NCBI RefSeq assembly: GCF_019039035.1
Contig: NZ_JAHNZT010000004.1
Coordinates: 1 to 64,000 of the forward strand
DNA from: Citreicoccus inhibens
GTDB taxonomy: Bacteria > Myxococcota > Myxococcia > Myxococcales > Myxococcaceae
Reading direction: 5' to 3'
Length of the DNA: 64,000 bases
The position numbers and the translations under genes are program-made. This document shows positions 15,525 to 25,610 of the stretch, piece after piece; position 1 is the first letter of the stretch, and each line of letters begins with the position of its first letter. The notes beneath the pieces are model-generated. The model was given only the letters and a program-made list of their open reading frames with translations, ran no database searches and had not been told where the DNA came from.

Positions 15525-15817
15525 TTAATCCTCCTAAGTGGAAAGATTAGGAAGAAGAGTGTCACAAGAGAGCCGCAGTTTTCAAGTCTATGCGAGATTT
15601 CTGCTGTTTGCCTAATTATCATGATTTGATAGGGCAATCCAACTATCTGACTTAATTGGTTATTTCACACTTTAAGGACCTCTCCAGTCTGTAACTTCAA
15701 AGAGGACTCCTTGGAGTGTCAGAAGTGAAGCAGCGTGGCCGGACGCGGGTCTGGGGGGTCCGGCATGGCTTCCGGCGGCGGCGGGGGTGGGCTAGGCACG
15801 AGTGCTGGAGGAGACAC
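15525..15817. promoter_or_regulatory. AT-rich divergent promoter region
   Basis: Between the protease and the oxidoreductase genes, about 15590-15680 is markedly AT-rich compared with everything around it (for example ttatcatgatttgatag and aattggttatttcacacttta). Reading toward the protease, ttggat and taatta lie 18 bases apart and could serve as -35/-10 boxes, though this is a weak match. The oxidoreductase start has a good ribosome site (ctggaggag) 5 bases before ATG 15818. Confidence 0.4.
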
Positions 15818-16789
15818 ATGCGCGCACTACAACTGCAGCGGCTGGAGGGGCCGGACGGGCTGGCGGTGGTGAACATTCCGGAGCCCGAGGCGGGGGACGG
15901 AGTGCTCATTGATGTGGTGGCCGCGGGCGCGAGCTTCCCGGATCTGCTCCTGACGCGGGGCCTGTACCAGATGCAGCCGCCGCTGCCGTTCGTGCCGGGG
16001 GTGGAGGTGGCGGGCGTGGTGCGCAGCGCGCCGGCGGGGGCCTCGGTGCGCCCGGGGGACCGGGTGATGGCGTTCACCTTCACGCTGGGCGGCTTCGCGG
16101 AGGTGGTGGCGGTGGCCCCCGAGATGACGTTCCGCATCCCCGAGCGCTGGAGCTTCGAGGCGGCGGCGGGGGTGGTGATGAACTACCACACCGCGCACTT
16201 CGCGCTGCACCGGCGTGGGCGCTTGAAGGCAGGCGAGGTGGTGGTGGTGCACGGCGCCGCGGGCGGAGTGGGCACCGCCGCGGTCCAGGTGGCGCGAGGC
16301 GCGGGCGCCAAGGTGCTGGCGGTGGTGAGCGACGAGCGCAAGGCGGAGGTGGCCCAGCGCGCGGGCGCGCACGAGTCGCTGTTGTCCACCGGGGATTGGA
16401 TCTCCCGCGTGCGCGAACTGACGGATGGCCGGGGCGCGGACGTGGTGCTGGACCCGGTGGGCGGGGACATCTTCGACAAGAGCCTCAAGTGCCTGGCGCC
16501 CGAGGGCCGCCTGCTGGTCGTGGGCTTCGCCAGCGGGCGCATCCCCGAGGTGACAACCAACCGGCTGCTCTTGCGCAACATCGACGTGGTGGGCGTGGCC
16601 TGGGGCGCGTTCCTCCTCCAGGACCCGGGCCTCACGGCGCGCATCGCGGGCGAATTGGAGTCCCTGGCCGCGCGCGGCATCCTGGAGCCCCTGGTGGGAC
16701 AGGTGTACCCGCTGGAGGAGGGCGCCCAGGCCCTGCGCGACCTGGAGGCGCGGCGCGCCACGGGAAAGCTGGTGCTGCGCATCCGTTGA
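15818..16789 (+). CDS. MDR-family NADPH:quinone-oxidoreductase-like enzyme
   Basis: Protein of 323 residues starting after ctggaggag. The N-terminal GroES-like fold contains AAGASFPDLLLTRGLYQ and PFVPGVEVAGVV, both typical of the quinone oxidoreductase (QOR) branch. The nucleotide-binding domain has VVVHGAAGGVGTAAVQ (glycine motif AxxGxxGxxA) and GRGADVVLDPVGGDIF. No catalytic zinc ligands are present in the usual positions, consistent with the zinc-free QOR group. It probably transfers hydride from NADPH to a quinone, enone or other unsaturated carbonyl; the substrate is not known. The glycosylase-like gene follows after 22 bp. Confidence 0.85.
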   Translation: MRALQLQRLEGPDGLAVVNIPEPEAGDGVLIDVVAAGASFPDLLLTRGLYQMQPPLPFVPGVEVAGVVRSAPAGASVRPGDRVMAFTFTLGGFAEVVAVAPEMTFRIPERWSFEAAAGVVMNYHTAHFALHRRGRLKAGEVVVVHGAAGGVGTAAVQVARGAGAKVLAVVSDERKAEVAQRAGAHESLLSTGDWISRVRELTDGRGADVVLDPVGGDIFDKSLKCLAPEGRLLVVGFASGRIPEVTTNRLLLRNIDVVGVAWGAFLLQDPGLTARIAGELESLAARGILEPLVGQVYPLEEGAQALRDLEARRATGKLVLRIR

Positions 16790-18442: not shown

Positions 18443-21442
18443 ATGCCCTCACCGCTCGTCCTGCGGCTTCCCGAGACTTCGCAGGTTGTTTTTGGACACA
18501 CGGTGCTGAATCAGCCGGAGTTGTTGCGGCGCGCGACGCTCATCGCCGAGCGGCTGCGCACGGACTTCGGAGTCGTGGCGGGAGACCGGGTGGGGTTGAT
18601 GACCGTCCCCGGGCCAGACGTGGTGCCCGCCCTGCTGGGCATCTGGATGGCGGGGGCGGCCTACGTGCCGCTCGACCCCTTCCTCCCGGATGAGCGATTG
18701 CTGCGCATCGTGCGAGACGCGGGCCTGCGAGGCATTGTCACGCAGCGCGAGCACCGCATCACCCTGGGCCTGCTCGAGAGCTGGCTGGGCGGGGCCCTGC
18801 CCTCGTTCGCGGTGGACGCGGAGGAGGAGTTCTCCCAAGCGCCCGCCCGCGCGCCCTCCGCGGACCTGGAGGTGCCGCCCGAGCGGCCGGCCTATCTCAT
18901 CTACACGTCTGGCAGCACGGGTGAGCCCAAGGGCGTGGTCTGCACCTTCCAGGGCGTGCACAACCTCATCCAGGCCGCGCGCCCCATCATGGCGCTGGGC
19001 TCCGCGACCCGTCATCTCCAGTTCGCGAGCATCAACTTTGACGCCTCGGTCTGGGAGCTGTTCCCCACCCTCTTCTGGGGTGGCACCGTGGTGCAGGGCA
19101 GCCGCGAGGAGCTGTTGCCTGGCCGCCGGCTGGCGCATGCACTGCATCACCATCGGGTGACCCACGTGTGCTTGCCGCCCTCGGTGCTGGGACAGCTCGG
19201 GCCGTTCGTGGACGCGCTGCCGGACCTCACCGACGTCATCATGGCCGGCGAGCGCTGCCCGCCTCCCTTGGCGGATCGCTGGCATGTCTCGGGGCGCCGC
19301 GTCTTCAACGCCTATGGCCCCACCGAGACCACGGTGTGCGCGACGATGTATCGCGTGCGCGGAGACGAGGCACCGGTCCCCATCGGGACCCCGCTGCCGG
19401 GGGTGCGCCTGCGCGTCATGCACGCCGGGGGCGAGGAGGCCCGCCCGGGACAGACGGGTGAGCTGTGGATTGGAGGCGCGGGCGTCGCCGCGGGCTACCG
19501 CAACCAGCCGGACAAGACGCGCGAGGCCTTCCCGCGCGATGCGGCCGGGGACGTCTGGTACCGGACGGGAGACGAGGTGGTGTACCGAGACGACGGCGAG
19601 CTCGTCTTCCTCGGGCGGCTGGACCACCAGGTGAAGCTGCGCGGATTCCGCATCGAGCTGGAGGCCATCGAGCAAGCGCTGTACGCCTTCCCCGGCGTCG
19701 CGCAGGCGGCGGTGAAGGTGTTCGAGGAGACGGACGCCCAAGGGCAGGTCTCCGGAGAGCTGGTCGCCTACTACGCCGTCCATGAAGGAGCCGCCGTCTC
19801 GCGCGACGCGCTGCGCGCGCAGGTTTCCGCGGTGCTGCCGGACTACATGGTGCCGCACCACTTCCAGTCGCTGCCGCGGCTGCCATTGATGCCCAACCTG
19901 GGCAAGGTGGACCGCCAGGCGCTGCCGCCCCCTCGGGACTGGAAGCGCGCCGACGCGGCCCGCCCTCCCAGCACCGCCAGCACCCCCATGGAACGGCTGT
20001 GCCGCGTGTTCGAGCAGACGCTCCGCGCGGCGCCGGGCACCTTCACCGAGTCCACCCACTTCTTCCATGCCGGCGGGGACTCGCTGGGCGTGGCCCGCGT
20101 GCTGGCGCGCGTGGAGGAGGAGTTCGGCGTCTCGCTTCCCTCTCGACAGCTCTACTCCCACCCCACGCCCGCCGCGCTGTTGCCCTTCTGCGCCACGGAT
20201 GGCGGCGCGCTCCCCCAGCCAGACTCCGTGCGCGACACGCTGCTGGCGGACGCGGCCTCCGTGCCGTCGCTCCGGCTGAACGCCCGGGGGACTCAGGATG
20301 CGCGCCCACCGCGCGCGGTGCTGCTCACCGGGGCCACGGGGTTCCTGGGCATCCACCTGCTCGCGGCGCTGGCCTCGCGCGTGGAGCGCGTCTACTGCCT
20401 GGTGCGTGCCCGGGACACCGCCGAGGCCCAGGCCCGCGTGCGCGCCACGGCGGCCCGCTACGCCGTCACCCTGCCCTGGAGCGAGGACCGCATCCGCGCG
20501 GTGCCGGGCGACATCACCCGCGAGTCGCTGGGCATGGAGCCGCTGCTGCATGACACGCTGGCGCGCGCGTGCGACGCGGTGGTGCACGCGGCGGCGAACA
20601 TCAGCTACATCCTGCCGTACGCCGACGCGGGCCGGCCCAACGTCGCGGGCACCCAGAACGTGCTCGCCTTCACCGCCTACGGCCGGCTCAAGGCGCTGCA
20701 TCACGTGTCCTCGCTCAGCGTGTACGGCGCGCTGGGCACCCTCAAGGACCGGCAGGTGGTGCCCGAGGACTTCGACCTCGACGAATCCCTGGACCTGATG
20801 CGCTACGAGAACGGCTACACCCGCGCCAAGTGGGTCGCGGAGCGGCTCGTCACGGCCGCGCGCGCGGCGGGGATGCCCGTGAGCATCTACCGCCCTGGCT
20901 TCATCGAGGGCCACAGCCGCACGGGCATCGGCAACGCGGATGACCTCTTGTGCCGGCTCCTGGTGGGCAACATCCAGATGGGCATCTACCCGGACTTCCC
21001 GCAGAAGTACTGGCTGCCCGTGCCGGTGGACTACGTGGCGACGGCCATGGCGCACCTCGTGGTCAACCAGCCACCGGGTGGCAACTACAACCTGGTGGCC
21101 GAACGCAGCCAGGAGCCCTCGCACAACGAAATCTTCGAGAGGCTCGGGGGCAAGGGGCATCCGCTGTTCCGCGTGCAGCCGCACGTGTGGCTGCGAGAGC
21201 TCACGCGGTTGGGACCGGACAACGCGCTGTTCCCCTTGGTGGGGTTCATGCGCGAGAAGGTCTACCACGGCACGCGAACGCTGCTGGAGCTGCACTACCG
21301 CTCCCCCATCGCCGACACGACGAACACGCGCGCGGCGCTCGCGGGCAGTGGCATCCAGTGCCCGGACATCGACGAGGCCCTGCTGCGCCGCTACCGCACG
21401 CACCTGCTCCAGCGACACCGCCACGCCGTCCGCGCGGCCTGA
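18443..21442 (+). CDS. NRPS-like A-T-R amino-acid reductase
   Basis: Protein of 999 residues from ATG 18443; ATG 18368 is an alternative. Adenylation domain (about 1-500): YLIYTSGSTGEPKGVV (A3), FDASVWELF with Asp200, NAYGPTETTVCATMY (A5), YRTGDEV (A7) and NLGKVDRQAL with Lys488 (A10). Reading the ten specificity positions against GrsA gives D-A-W-C-I-A-A-V-C-K, close to the Phe code. Carrier domain: FFHAGGDSLG with Ser547 for phosphopantetheine. Thioester reductase domain (about 615-985): VLLTGATGFLG (Gly630) and a Tyr792/Lys796 pair in GYTRAKW. There is no condensation domain. It should activate an aromatic amino acid and release it reductively as aldehyde or alcohol. No other biosynthetic gene adjoins it. 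Confidence 0.88.
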   Translation: MPSPLVLRLPETSQVVFGHTVLNQPELLRRATLIAERLRTDFGVVAGDRVGLMTVPGPDVVPALLGIWMAGAAYVPLDPFLPDERLLRIVRDAGLRGIVTQREHRITLGLLESWLGGALPSFAVDAEEEFSQAPARAPSADLEVPPERPAYLIYTSGSTGEPKGVVCTFQGVHNLIQAARPIMALGSATRHLQFASINFDASVWELFPTLFWGGTVVQGSREELLPGRRLAHALHHHRVTHVCLPPSVLGQLGPFVDALPDLTDVIMAGERCPPPLADRWHVSGRRVFNAYGPTETTVCATMYRVRGDEAPVPIGTPLPGVRLRVMHAGGEEARPGQTGELWIGGAGVAAGYRNQPDKTREAFPRDAAGDVWYRTGDEVVYRDDGELVFLGRLDHQVKLRGFRIELEAIEQALYAFPGVAQAAVKVFEETDAQGQVSGELVAYYAVHEGAAVSRDALRAQVSAVLPDYMVPHHFQSLPRLPLMPNLGKVDRQALPPPRDWKRADAARPPSTASTPMERLCRVFEQTLRAAPGTFTESTHFFHAGGDSLGVARVLARVEEEFGVSLPSRQLYSHPTPAALLPFCATDGGALPQPDSVRDTLLADAASVPSLRLNARGTQDARPPRAVLLTGATGFLGIHLLAALASRVERVYCLVRARDTAEAQARVRATAARYAVTLPWSEDRIRAVPGDITRESLGMEPLLHDTLARACDAVVHAAANISYILPYADAGRPNVAGTQNVLAFTAYGRLKALHHVSSLSVYGALGTLKDRQVVPEDFDLDESLDLMRYENGYTRAKWVAERLVTAARAAGMPVSIYRPGFIEGHSRTGIGNADDLLCRLLVGNIQMGIYPDFPQKYWLPVPVDYVATAMAHLVVNQPPGGNYNLVAERSQEPSHNEIFERLGGKGHPLFRVQPHVWLRELTRLGPDNALFPLVGFMREKVYHGTRTLLELHYRSPIADTTNTRAALAGSGIQCPDIDEALLRRYRTHLLQRHRHAVRAA

Positions 21443-21479: not shown

Positions 21480-21902
21480 ATGTCGTCCACCGCCCCCCGC
21501 CGTCGTGAGCCGCACGCGCCACCCCGCTCCTGGTGGCGGCAGGTGCTGGACTTCCTGGAGCTGTCCAGCCCCGAGGGACAGAAAGGCCTCGCCCTCGTGG
21601 TGGGCCTGCTCGTCGTCGGATTCGGGCCGCTGGTGCTGCTCGCGGTCCTGGACGTGAGTGGCCCTTTGCGCAAGCTGCTGGTCGCGCTGGGGCCCGTGTC
21701 CATCTGTCTGGGATTCGCGGGCCTCGTCCTGGTGTGTGGCTACCGGTATGGCGAGGCGCTCAAGTGGTCGCGCCGCCAGACGTGGGGACTCGCCGCGATG
21801 TTCGTGGGCCTGGGCCTGCTGGGTGGCCTGGGGCTCTGGTTCAGCGAGAGCTCGCCGGAGCACGGCCAGCGCCCGTCCTCGGTCGGGGACGAGCGCCCGT
21901 GA
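21480..21902 (+). CDS. Small three-helix membrane protein
   Basis: Protein of 140 residues with an Arg/Pro-rich N-terminus and three hydrophobic helices: GLALVVGLLVVGFGPLVLLA, LVALGPVSICLGFAGLVLVC and WGLAAMFVGLGLLGGLGLWF. The end is polar (SESSPEHGQRPSSVGDERP). No family motif was recognised. It starts 37 bp after the reductase gene and may be co-transcribed with it, but nothing in the sequence ties it to that enzyme. It converges on the trigger-factor-like gene with 13 bp between stops. Confidence 0.6.
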   Translation: MSSTAPRRREPHAPPRSWWRQVLDFLELSSPEGQKGLALVVGLLVVGFGPLVLLAVLDVSGPLRKLLVALGPVSICLGFAGLVLVCGYRYGEALKWSRRQTWGLAAMFVGLGLLGGLGLWFSESSPEHGQRPSSVGDERP

Positions 21903-21915
21903 GCACCTGGAGCGG

Positions 21916-22992
21916 TCAGCCCTGCTCCGCGCCCTCGAAGACGACCTTCGCCTGGTTCATGACGTGCTCGACCGCGAGCAGGTACCAGCCCATCTCGGTG
22001 AGGCGCCTGGTCGTCTCCGGCGTCTCACGCAGGGCGGCGTGCACGTCCGCCGCGGTGAGCCCGAAGGGCTCCGTGGAGTCGCGGATCAACTGCTCCAGCT
22101 TCTCCGCCGTGAGCTGTAGCTTCGCGGCTTCGGTGACGGCCTTCAGCACGAGGCCAATGTGCAATCCGCGCTCGGCGTCCGCGCGCGTGGTCGGGTCGGT
22201 GAGCCAGCCGCGGAGCGCCTCTTGCTGCTCCTCGACGTCGAACTGGTACGCGACCATGGCCTGACCCTCGGCATGGACCCAACGGCGGCGGAGCTCCTCA
22301 TCCACCAACGTCGGTGACAGCTCCACCGGAGCGCGCCGGGCCACCTCGTCCAGCACCAGGTCCTGGGCCTGCACCCACAGCTGCGCCGCGAGCGCGTCCT
22401 CCATCTCCTCACGCAGCTGGCTCATCACTTCATCCAGGGTGCCGCCCATGCCGAGCTTCGAGAGGAACTCGGGCGAGGTCTCCGGCAGCATCGTCACCTG
22501 GTGCGCGCCGAGGATGTCCACGAGGAAGCGCGCGGGCTTCCCCTGGAGCGACTCCACCGGATAGTCGTCCGGCAGCACGAGGGCGATCTGCATGGACTCG
22601 CCCACCTTGCCCCCTTCCGCGACGCCCTCGCAGAACCCAGGCAGCGCCTCGATGGGCGCCAGCTCCGTCCGCATTCCGAAGCGCGCGCTGAACGGGATGA
22701 GCGTCCCATCGCAGTAGCCCACGATGTTGAGCTGCACGTCGTCGCCCAGCTCCAGCGACTCGCCGGCCTGACGCTCGCGCGTGGTGGCCACGGCCCGGCG
22801 CTTCTCGTGGAAGTTGCGCAGGAGGTCTTCCTCGGTCAGGTCCTCCGGAGTGGGGACGCGCACGGAGAGCCCGTCCAGGGACGGGGCCTTCACGTGGGGG
22901 AGCTTGAGGGCCTCGGCGGAAGCGCTGCTCACCACCGGGCTCATCTTGAGCAGGCGCTCGACACCCCGACCTGATGATTGCTTGCTGCTCAC
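21916..22992 (-). CDS. Trigger-factor-like chaperone without ribosome-binding domain
   Basis: Protein of 358 residues. GTG 22992 is chosen because gggag lies just upstream; ATG 23058 has no ribosome site. Residues about 80-185 read as a trigger-factor PPIase domain (LGDDVQLNIVGYCDGTLIPF, ELAPIEALPGFCEGVAEGGK, VLPDDYPVESLQGKPARFLV). The rest matches the helical chaperone arms (VMSQLREEMEDALAAQLW, VELSPTLVDEELRRRWVHAE). The N-terminal ribosome-docking domain with its G-F-R-x-G-x-x-P loop is absent, replaced by about 45 low-complexity residues. It is probably a ribosome-independent holdase/foldase. It lies directly downstream of the glycine-zipper gene, 121 bp away on the same strand, and may serve that product. 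Confidence 0.72.
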   Translation of the reverse strand: MSSKQSSGRGVERLLKMSPVVSSASAEALKLPHVKAPSLDGLSVRVPTPEDLTEEDLLRNFHEKRRAVATTRERQAGESLELGDDVQLNIVGYCDGTLIPFSARFGMRTELAPIEALPGFCEGVAEGGKVGESMQIALVLPDDYPVESLQGKPARFLVDILGAHQVTMLPETSPEFLSKLGMGGTLDEVMSQLREEMEDALAAQLWVQAQDLVLDEVARRAPVELSPTLVDEELRRRWVHAEGQAMVAYQFDVEEQQEALRGWLTDPTTRADAERGLHIGLVLKAVTEAAKLQLTAEKLEQLIRDSTEPFGLTAADVHAALRETPETTRRLTEMGWYLLAVEHVMNQAKVVFEGAEQG

Positions 22993-23113
22993 GGATGCTC
23001 CCGGGAGATAGGCGTGCCAGCGCCCGCGCCAATGGGGAACAAAGCGACGGCTCGGCATGGACCCAAGGCTTAGTCCAGCCGAGCCGCTCTGACAAACGAC
23101 GAAGCGGTGAGGC

Positions 23114-24365: not shown

Positions 24366-25610
24366 TCAGTGGCGGCCGGACGGCGCGCTCGCGGCCTCTC
24401 GGAGCCGGTAGTGGGACAGCACTGGCTGGTGGTCCGAGGACTCGGTGGAGCGATCCACCTCGAAGAGCACGGGCTCCAGGCTGGGGCTCGCGTAGAAGTT
24501 GTCGAACCGCTTGCCGGTGGCGGGAACGAGGCCCGCTTCATCCGGCAGGGACGACAGCGTGGCGCAATCCGCCACATCCTGGAGCCGCAGCCACTCCTGA
24601 CCGCCGCGCGCGACGTGGCCCGAGCGCAGCGCCTCGCGCGCCGCGTGGGGCGTCATCACCGAGCCATCCGCGAGGCGCACGTGCACCTGCGCCGCGTGCG
24701 CGATGGTCTCGGGCAGCGCGTGCTCCAGGTGGTGGAGCGCGTGGCGCAGGCGCGGATCCGCGATGTTGCCCACGCCCCAGTCGCCCACCGTGGCCCTCGG
24801 CGTGCCGTACCGGGCGCGGTACTCCTCCACCGTGTCCGTGTCGTCGTACGCCCCCCAGTGGGCCCACAGCCAGGAGCCACCGCGCTTGATGGCGGTGTTC
24901 GCGTTGAAGTCCCCCAGCACCACCGCGTCCGCGTCCTCTCGGTGCCGCAGCAGCACGTTGAGCTGCCGGAGGTTGTGCGCGTTGATGCCCGAGTCTCCCA
25001 AGGCGTGGTGCAGGTTGTAGAGAGACACCGAGCGCCCCGCCACGTCGATGCGCGCCCAGAGCACGCCTCGGTCTTCCACCAACTCGCCGGGCTCACCCTG
25101 TCGCGCGATGGCCGCGTCGCGCTCCGCGTCCGCAATGACATACGTGAAATGCGCCGCGTCCCGCAGCGGATGCCGACTGAGCAAGGCCTTGCCATTCACC
25201 AGCCGCGCCGCGCTGCCGCCGTCATTCCCCTGATAGGCGAGGTGGAAGCCGAACCGGGACGCCAGGAGCGCGGCCATGGGCACGCTGGCTTCCTGCAACC
25301 CGATGACATCCGGCATCCGCCCGGCCTTCTCCAGCTGCGCGAAGTACGCGAGCAGCGGCTCGCGGTACAGCCCGCCGAGCAGGATGTTGTAGCTCATGAC
25401 CGTGAGGCCCGGACCTCGCGGCGGGGTCACGGCGGGGTGGCGAACCACCAGCGTGCGCCCGTCTCCCAGCCGGCGCTCGCCCGACGGCCGAGGCAGCGCG
25501 GTGAAGTCGGTGAAGCCCAGGGTCTCCTCGCGCCGAGGCCACTCCTCGGTCCCGCGCGCGAGCCGAGGCCCCACCGCGGGCAGGTGCTCCAAGAGCTCAG
25601 GGACCTTCAT
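24366..25610 (-). CDS. Endonuclease/exonuclease/phosphatase-family protein
   Basis: Protein of 414 residues. The EEP fold motifs are in order: LTVMSYNILLGG, IGLQEASVP (metal-binding Glu), LYNLHHALGDSG (His), VVLGDFNANT (D-x-N) and SSDHQPVLSHY (final D-H). An N-terminal extension of about 65 residues precedes the catalytic core. Family members hydrolyse DNA, RNA, phosphoinositides or sphingomyelin; no feature here chooses between them, and there is no signal peptide. A gagggg ribosome site precedes the ATG. A 183 bp gap separates it from the upstream rpiA gene on the same strand. Confidence 0.8.
   Translation of the reverse strand: MKVPELLEHLPAVGPRLARGTEEWPRREETLGFTDFTALPRPSGERRLGDGRTLVVRHPAVTPPRGPGLTVMSYNILLGGLYREPLLAYFAQLEKAGRMPDVIGLQEASVPMAALLASRFGFHLAYQGNDGGSAARLVNGKALLSRHPLRDAAHFTYVIADAERDAAIARQGEPGELVEDRGVLWARIDVAGRSVSLYNLHHALGDSGINAHNLRQLNVLLRHREDADAVVLGDFNANTAIKRGGSWLWAHWGAYDDTDTVEEYRARYGTPRATVGDWGVGNIADPRLRHALHHLEHALPETIAHAAQVHVRLADGSVMTPHAAREALRSGHVARGGQEWLRLQDVADCATLSSLPDEAGLVPATGKRFDNFYASPSLEPVLFEVDRSTESSDHQPVLSHYRLREAASAPSGRH

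What the first reader, a model, noticed from the sequence alone, without database searches (positions are those of the whole stretch)
18443..21442. Stand-alone A-T-R reductase predicted to use phenylalanine
The specificity residues read D-A-W-C-I-A-A-V-C-K, which differs from the GrsA Phe code at two places only. With no condensation domain and no other biosynthetic neighbour, the product should be an amino-aldehyde or amino-alcohol; amino-aldehydes can dimerise to pyrazines. This could be a minimal one-gene metabolite locus.
Basis: partly seen in the sequence, partly recalled or inferred. Interest (0 to 1): 0.62.

Follow-up and report, generated by a model that had tools for sequence, protein, structure and literature searches.

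The report
One-gene phenylalanine-reducing A-T-R enzyme
This predatory soil bacterium has one intact gene for a small stand-alone enzyme that probably turns phenylalanine into a reactive aldehyde which pairs up to form dibenzylpyrazine; the enzyme type is already known, but here it may explain a compound reported from related Corallococcus strains for which I found no gene.

Summary
Window 18443-21442 (+) is an intact 999-aa A-T-R protein. The specificity residues, aligned to GrsA (1amu), read DAWCIAAVCK, two changes from GrsA. The carrier serine and the reductase TGATGFLG, S and Y-x3-K motifs are present.

It is not a one-off. Orthologs sit at the same chromosomal site in 12 of 16 Corallococcus species (70-72% identity, code DAWCVAAVCK) and in the only sequenced congener (96%). 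In the Corallococcus species without it, the gene order closes up with only this gene missing, so it is gained or lost alone. The genome's other reductase megasynthases are MxcG (myxochelin, Lys code) and an ElbD-like lipid enzyme. PPTases are present.

Most likely mechanism: L-Phe is adenylated, loaded and released as phenylalaninal, and two molecules condense and oxidise to 2,5-dibenzylpyrazine. This is what Xenorhabdus indica ATRed does. Dibenzylpyrazine has been reported, without a gene, as a dominant peak in 21 Corallococcus strains. That link is my inference and is untested. The main rival is four-electron reduction to phenylalaninol, because the nearest solved R domain is the alcohol-forming MxaA.

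This is a new member of a known kind, with a clear and testable orphan-metabolite assignment.

The parts
18443..21442 (+). A-T-R protein (999 aa), the whole gene
   Evidence: orthologs; dN/dS
18470..19891 (+). Adenylation domain (residues 10-483). Code residues D200 A201 W204 C243 I266 A268 A290 V298 C299 K488 = DAWCIAAVCK
   Evidence: Pfam PF00501 and PF13193; alignment to GrsA/1amu
19991..20179 (+). Thiolation (carrier) domain, residues 517-579, with GGDSL; Ser547 (20081-20083) is the predicted phosphopantetheine site
   Evidence: PF00550; motif invariant in orthologs
20318..21412 (+). Thioester reductase domain, residues 626-990: NAD(P)H motif TGATGFLG (629-636), S756/S757, Y792-x3-K796
   Evidence: TIGR01746 264.5 bits, PF07993, MxaA as closest solved structure, residues invariant in the aligned orthologs
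15716..16789 (+). Upstream MDR/quinone-reductase-type gene; conserved neighbour, probably not part of the pathway because it is also present in genomes without the A-T-R
24366..25610 (-). Endonuclease/exonuclease/phosphatase-family gene marking the downstream edge of the conserved slot; not part of the pathway

Best explanation
The gene encodes a self-sufficient minimal NRPS. Its A domain adenylates L-Phe (inferred from the code). The carrier domain, activated by one of the cell's Sfp-type PPTases, holds phenylalanyl thioester (inferred from intact motifs). The R domain releases it reductively with NAD(P)H as phenylalaninal (inferred). Two phenylalaninal molecules condense head to tail to a dihydropyrazine that oxidises in air to 2,5-dibenzylpyrazine, without further enzymes. 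In Corallococcus and this sister genus the gene would then be the dibenzylpyrazine synthase.
For: Intact A, T and R domains and motifs. Purifying selection. The gene comes and goes alone from a conserved slot, as expected of a pathway that needs no partner gene. Three Sfp-like PPTases plus one AcpS-size one are in the genome. It is the only amino-acid A-T-R besides MxcG in the genome. Precedent: X. indica ATRed, A-T-R, makes the Phe-Phe pyrazine, m/z 261.13, also when expressed alone in E. coli (PMC7586950). Chemistry: dibenzylpyrazine was one of three dominant peaks in raw extracts of 21 Corallococcus moor strains (PMC6164225).
Against: No biochemical data. The specificity code is a predictor, and Cys at position 278 occurs only in this ortholog group in the set examined. 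The R domain's nearest solved relative, MxaA, belongs to a four-electron, alcohol-forming enzyme by established knowledge. The Corallococcus chemistry is stated as unpublished data in a review, and those strains' genomes were not examined; they are closest to C. exiguus by 16S (PMC5552953). The ATRed sequence itself could not be obtained for comparison.
Confidence: 0.62

Rival explanations
1. Same enzyme, but the R domain reduces twice and releases L-phenylalaninol, the end product or a precursor for another pathway.
For: Closest solved R domain is MxaA (194 bits, against 90 or less for aldehyde-forming CARs and 41 for AusA), sharing the GHSRTG-x3-N-x-DD segment. MxcG, the best full-length NCBIfam relative, forms an alcohol in myxochelin A (established knowledge).
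Against: Similarity of R domains does not predict two- or four-electron outcome reliably. Corallococcus strains are reported to make the aldehyde-derived dibenzylpyrazine.
Confidence: 0.2
2. The A domain takes another substrate (Tyr, Trp, Leu, a non-proteinogenic or non-amino aryl acid), so the product is a different aldehyde, alcohol or pyrazine.
For: T278C is absent from the other Phe-like codes found. ATRed itself accepts a little Trp and Tyr.
Against: Asp at 235 and Lys at 517, the alpha-amino-acid pair, are kept. W239 with A301/A322/C331 is the aromatic Phe pattern, while Leu-like codes seen here carry Gly at 301.
Confidence: 0.13

Closest known systems
ATRed (xind01729) of Xenorhabdus indica (PMC7586950)
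   Same: A-T-R architecture, no C domain, one gene, Phe as predicted substrate, candidate product the Phe-derived pyrazine
   Different: Different phylum; sequence and code not available here to compare. Conserved, syntenic in a whole myxobacterial genus here
MxcG, myxochelin NRPS
   Same: Best full-length NCBIfam relative of the A-T-R part (528 bits); same R-domain superfamily
   Different: Has a C domain (C-A-T-R) and Lys code DAEDIGTVVK; 528 bits is far below the MxcG cut-off of 2300. The genome has its own true MxcG (2538 bits)
Carboxylic acid reductases (CARs, 5msc etc.)
   Same: A-T-R order and reductive release
   Different: Here the A domain is of NRPS amino-acid type (TIGR01733); the CAR model scores 167 bits against a cut-off of 1300
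Stand-alone A-T-R proteins of Myxococcaceae and enterobacteria (L080-L083, L123-L139)
   Same: Same domain order and size (about 990-1120 aa)
   Different: 29-35% identity over the matched span; codes such as DIYTVGGIYK, DAFLLGVTIK, DVWFFAYIFK, not Phe-like
CorA of Corallococcus exiguus SDU70 (coralinone, PMC10979478)
   Same: Corallococcus, amino-acid-derived pyrazine-type ring
   Different: A-T-C-A-T-KS-AT-ACP-TE hybrid making a methylated pyrazinone

Membership tests
Minimal NRPS of A-T-R type (ATRed-like) | A, T and R domains in this order, no C domain | tested here: met
Minimal NRPS of A-T-R type (ATRed-like) | Intact carrier serine and reductase TGxxGxxG, Y-x3-K | tested here: met
Minimal NRPS of A-T-R type (ATRed-like) | A domain with Phe specificity | tested here: inconclusive
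   Code 2 of 10 from GrsA; a prediction only
Minimal NRPS of A-T-R type (ATRed-like) | Produces aldehyde that dimerises to a pyrazine | not testable with these tools
   needs expression and LC-MS
Minimal NRPS of A-T-R type (ATRed-like) | Sequence orthology to X. indica ATRed | not tested
   Named sequence could not be fetched; enterobacterial A-T-Rs found have other codes
MxcG (myxochelin synthetase) | C-A-T-R with NF038078 score of 2300 or more | tested here: not met
   528 bits and no C domain
Carboxylic acid reductase (NF041592) | Score of 1300 bits or more | tested here: not met
   167 bits
Alpha-aminoadipate reductase Lys2 (TIGR03443) | Score of 1030 bits or more | tested here: not met
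   271 bits

The most novel reading that the evidence does not exclude
A vertically kept, single-gene phenylalaninal/dibenzylpyrazine locus that marks Corallococcus and its sister genus, where the pyrazine serves a social or predatory role and the gene behaves as a portable one-gene metabolite cassette.
Probability: 0.25. Interest if true: 0.55.

Novelty: new member of a known kind. Interest (0 to 1): 0.42.

Why it matters
If right, one gene explains a compound reported as a dominant peak from many Corallococcus strains and for which I found no gene in the papers searched. One knock-out, or one E. coli expression as done for ATRed, would settle it. Because some Corallococcus species naturally lack only this gene, natural presence and absence can be compared with metabolite profiles directly.

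Tried and rejected
Structure prediction of the whole protein from 8 orthologs gave mean pLDDT 38 and pTM 0.27 and was not used. A first R-domain tree joined this group to other Myxococcaceae A-T-Rs L080-L083 at 96/92; with more sequences that join vanished, those joined enterobacterial A-T-Rs at 100/100 and this group had no resolved sister, so I claim no common origin of stand-alone A-T-Rs. A-T tree deep splits also rest on long branches. Rejected: MxcG paralog or remnant (own MxcG present), CAR and Lys2, pseudogene (intact frame, dN/dS about 0.1), a cluster with the MDR gene (present without A-T-R). The promoter scan found nothing above chance. Coralinone was considered and dropped. Literature searches for a myxobacterial phenylalaninal or dibenzylpyrazine gene found none, but only open-licence papers are held.

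Full report
What is there. Window 18443-21442 (+) is an open frame of 999 codons with GC 0.73/0.49/0.91 at codon positions 1/2/3, the pattern of real genes in this genome. Pfam and NCBIfam place an amino-acid adenylation domain, a carrier domain and a thioester reductase domain, with no condensation domain. Aligned to GrsA, whose A-domain stretch was checked as identical to PDB 1amu, the ten code residues are DAWCIAAVCK against DAWTIAAICK. The carrier motif GGDSL, the reductase TGATGFLG, HVSSLS and Y-T-R-A-K are present and invariant in aligned orthologs. One small oddity, shared by all orthologs, is an extra Leu in the A10 motif (PN/PH-L-GKVDR for the usual PNGKVDR); the catalytic Lys is kept.

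Conservation. The two species of the window's genus carry the gene at 96% identity, and 12 of 16 genomes of a second genus carry it at 70-72%. No ortholog passed 1e-150 in the other 24 genera of the family, including the 27 genomes of group g19. All 20 ortholog sequences other than the window keep D-A-W-C-[IV]-A-A-V-C-K (some of these are the same genome fetched twice). dN/dS is 0.018/0.19 within the genus and 0.22/0.53 to Corallococcus (the second dS is likely depressed by GC-rich third positions).

One-gene unit. The order M4 peptidase, MDR oxidoreductase, [AlkZ or a 159-aa gene], A-T-R, endonuclease/phosphatase-family gene is shared by window and Corallococcus. In G024 the slot reads M4, MDR, 146-aa gene, phosphatase-family gene, with 64 bases where the A-T-R would be; G022, G026 and G030 show the same closed slot, and Myxococcus-type genomes lack the gene too. 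So only this gene is gained or lost. Other window genes examined are housekeeping or regulatory, and the nearest other A domain on this contig is about 247 kb away.

What else in the genome could do this. Of the strong thioester-reductase hits that lie in a protein with an AMP-binding domain, one is a true MxcG (2538 bits, cut-off 2300) with Lys code DAEDIGTVVK, and one is a reductase-ligase-carrier-acyltransferase protein whose order resembles ElbD of ether-lipid synthesis (the ElbD name is from memory). This protein is therefore the only Phe-type A-T-R. Four PPTase-family proteins are encoded.

Mechanism. Shown: intact domains, motifs, code, conservation, isolated gain and loss. Inferred: Phe activation, two-electron release, dimerisation. 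The precedent is ATRed of X. indica, where an A-T-R enzyme makes a Phe-derived pyrazine both in the native host and alone in E. coli (PMC7586950). Independently, a review reports that raw extracts of 21 Corallococcus moor strains had three dominant peaks, identified as dibenzylpyrazine and two myxothiazols (PMC6164225, unpublished data); 22 of the moor strains are almost identical by 16S and nearest C. exiguus (PMC5552953). Joining the two gives the proposal that this gene is the dibenzylpyrazine synthase of Corallococcus. No paper found here makes that link.

Aldehyde or alcohol. The R domain is most like MxaA among solved structures (194 bits, CARs 90 or less, AusA 41). MxaA forms alcohols, so phenylalaninol stays a real rival. 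The reported pyrazine in Corallococcus is the main reason to prefer the aldehyde.

Relation to known kinds. It works like ATRed and fits that architecture class. Orthology to ATRed was not tested because the sequence could not be fetched. Stand-alone A-T-Rs are common: enterobacterial and other myxobacterial examples carry many different codes, and trees do not support a single origin or a definite sister for this group. Verdict: real, functional-looking, a new member of a known kind, with a testable product assignment.

Noticed in passing
L080-L083 (regions of G057, G055, G061, G055): Myxococcaceae genomes hold other stand-alone A-T-R proteins (1038-1123 aa frames) with codes DIYTVGGIYK, DAFLLGVTIK, DAFLLGLTVK and DMHSIGAIYK; their R domains group with enterobacterial A-T-Rs at 100/100.
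   Followed up: partly
L068/L085 and L084 (G008, G005): A-T-R-containing frames of 1168 aa with about 195 extra N-terminal residues and code DASDVGVICK; the N-terminal part was not identified.
   Followed up: no
L114-L116 (G030, G026, G022): Three Corallococcus genomes without the A-T-R have extra gene(s) between the M4 peptidase and MDR genes, with frames of about 990 and 567-647 aa where the contig reaches far enough, not seen in the others.
   Followed up: no
window 21916-23058 (-): A trigger-factor-like protein matching mainly the C-terminal domain, below the NCBIfam trigger factor cut-off (121.7 against 180.2 bits).
   Followed up: no
window 21480-21902 (+): Small gene with hydrophobic stretches starting 37 bases after the A-T-R on the same strand, kept in the congener but not at this place in Corallococcus; no Pfam match.
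   Followed up: partly
L079 5768-10147 (own genome, contig C35): Reductase-ligase-carrier-acyltransferase fusion, order as recalled for ElbD of myxobacterial ether-lipid synthesis.
   Followed up: partly
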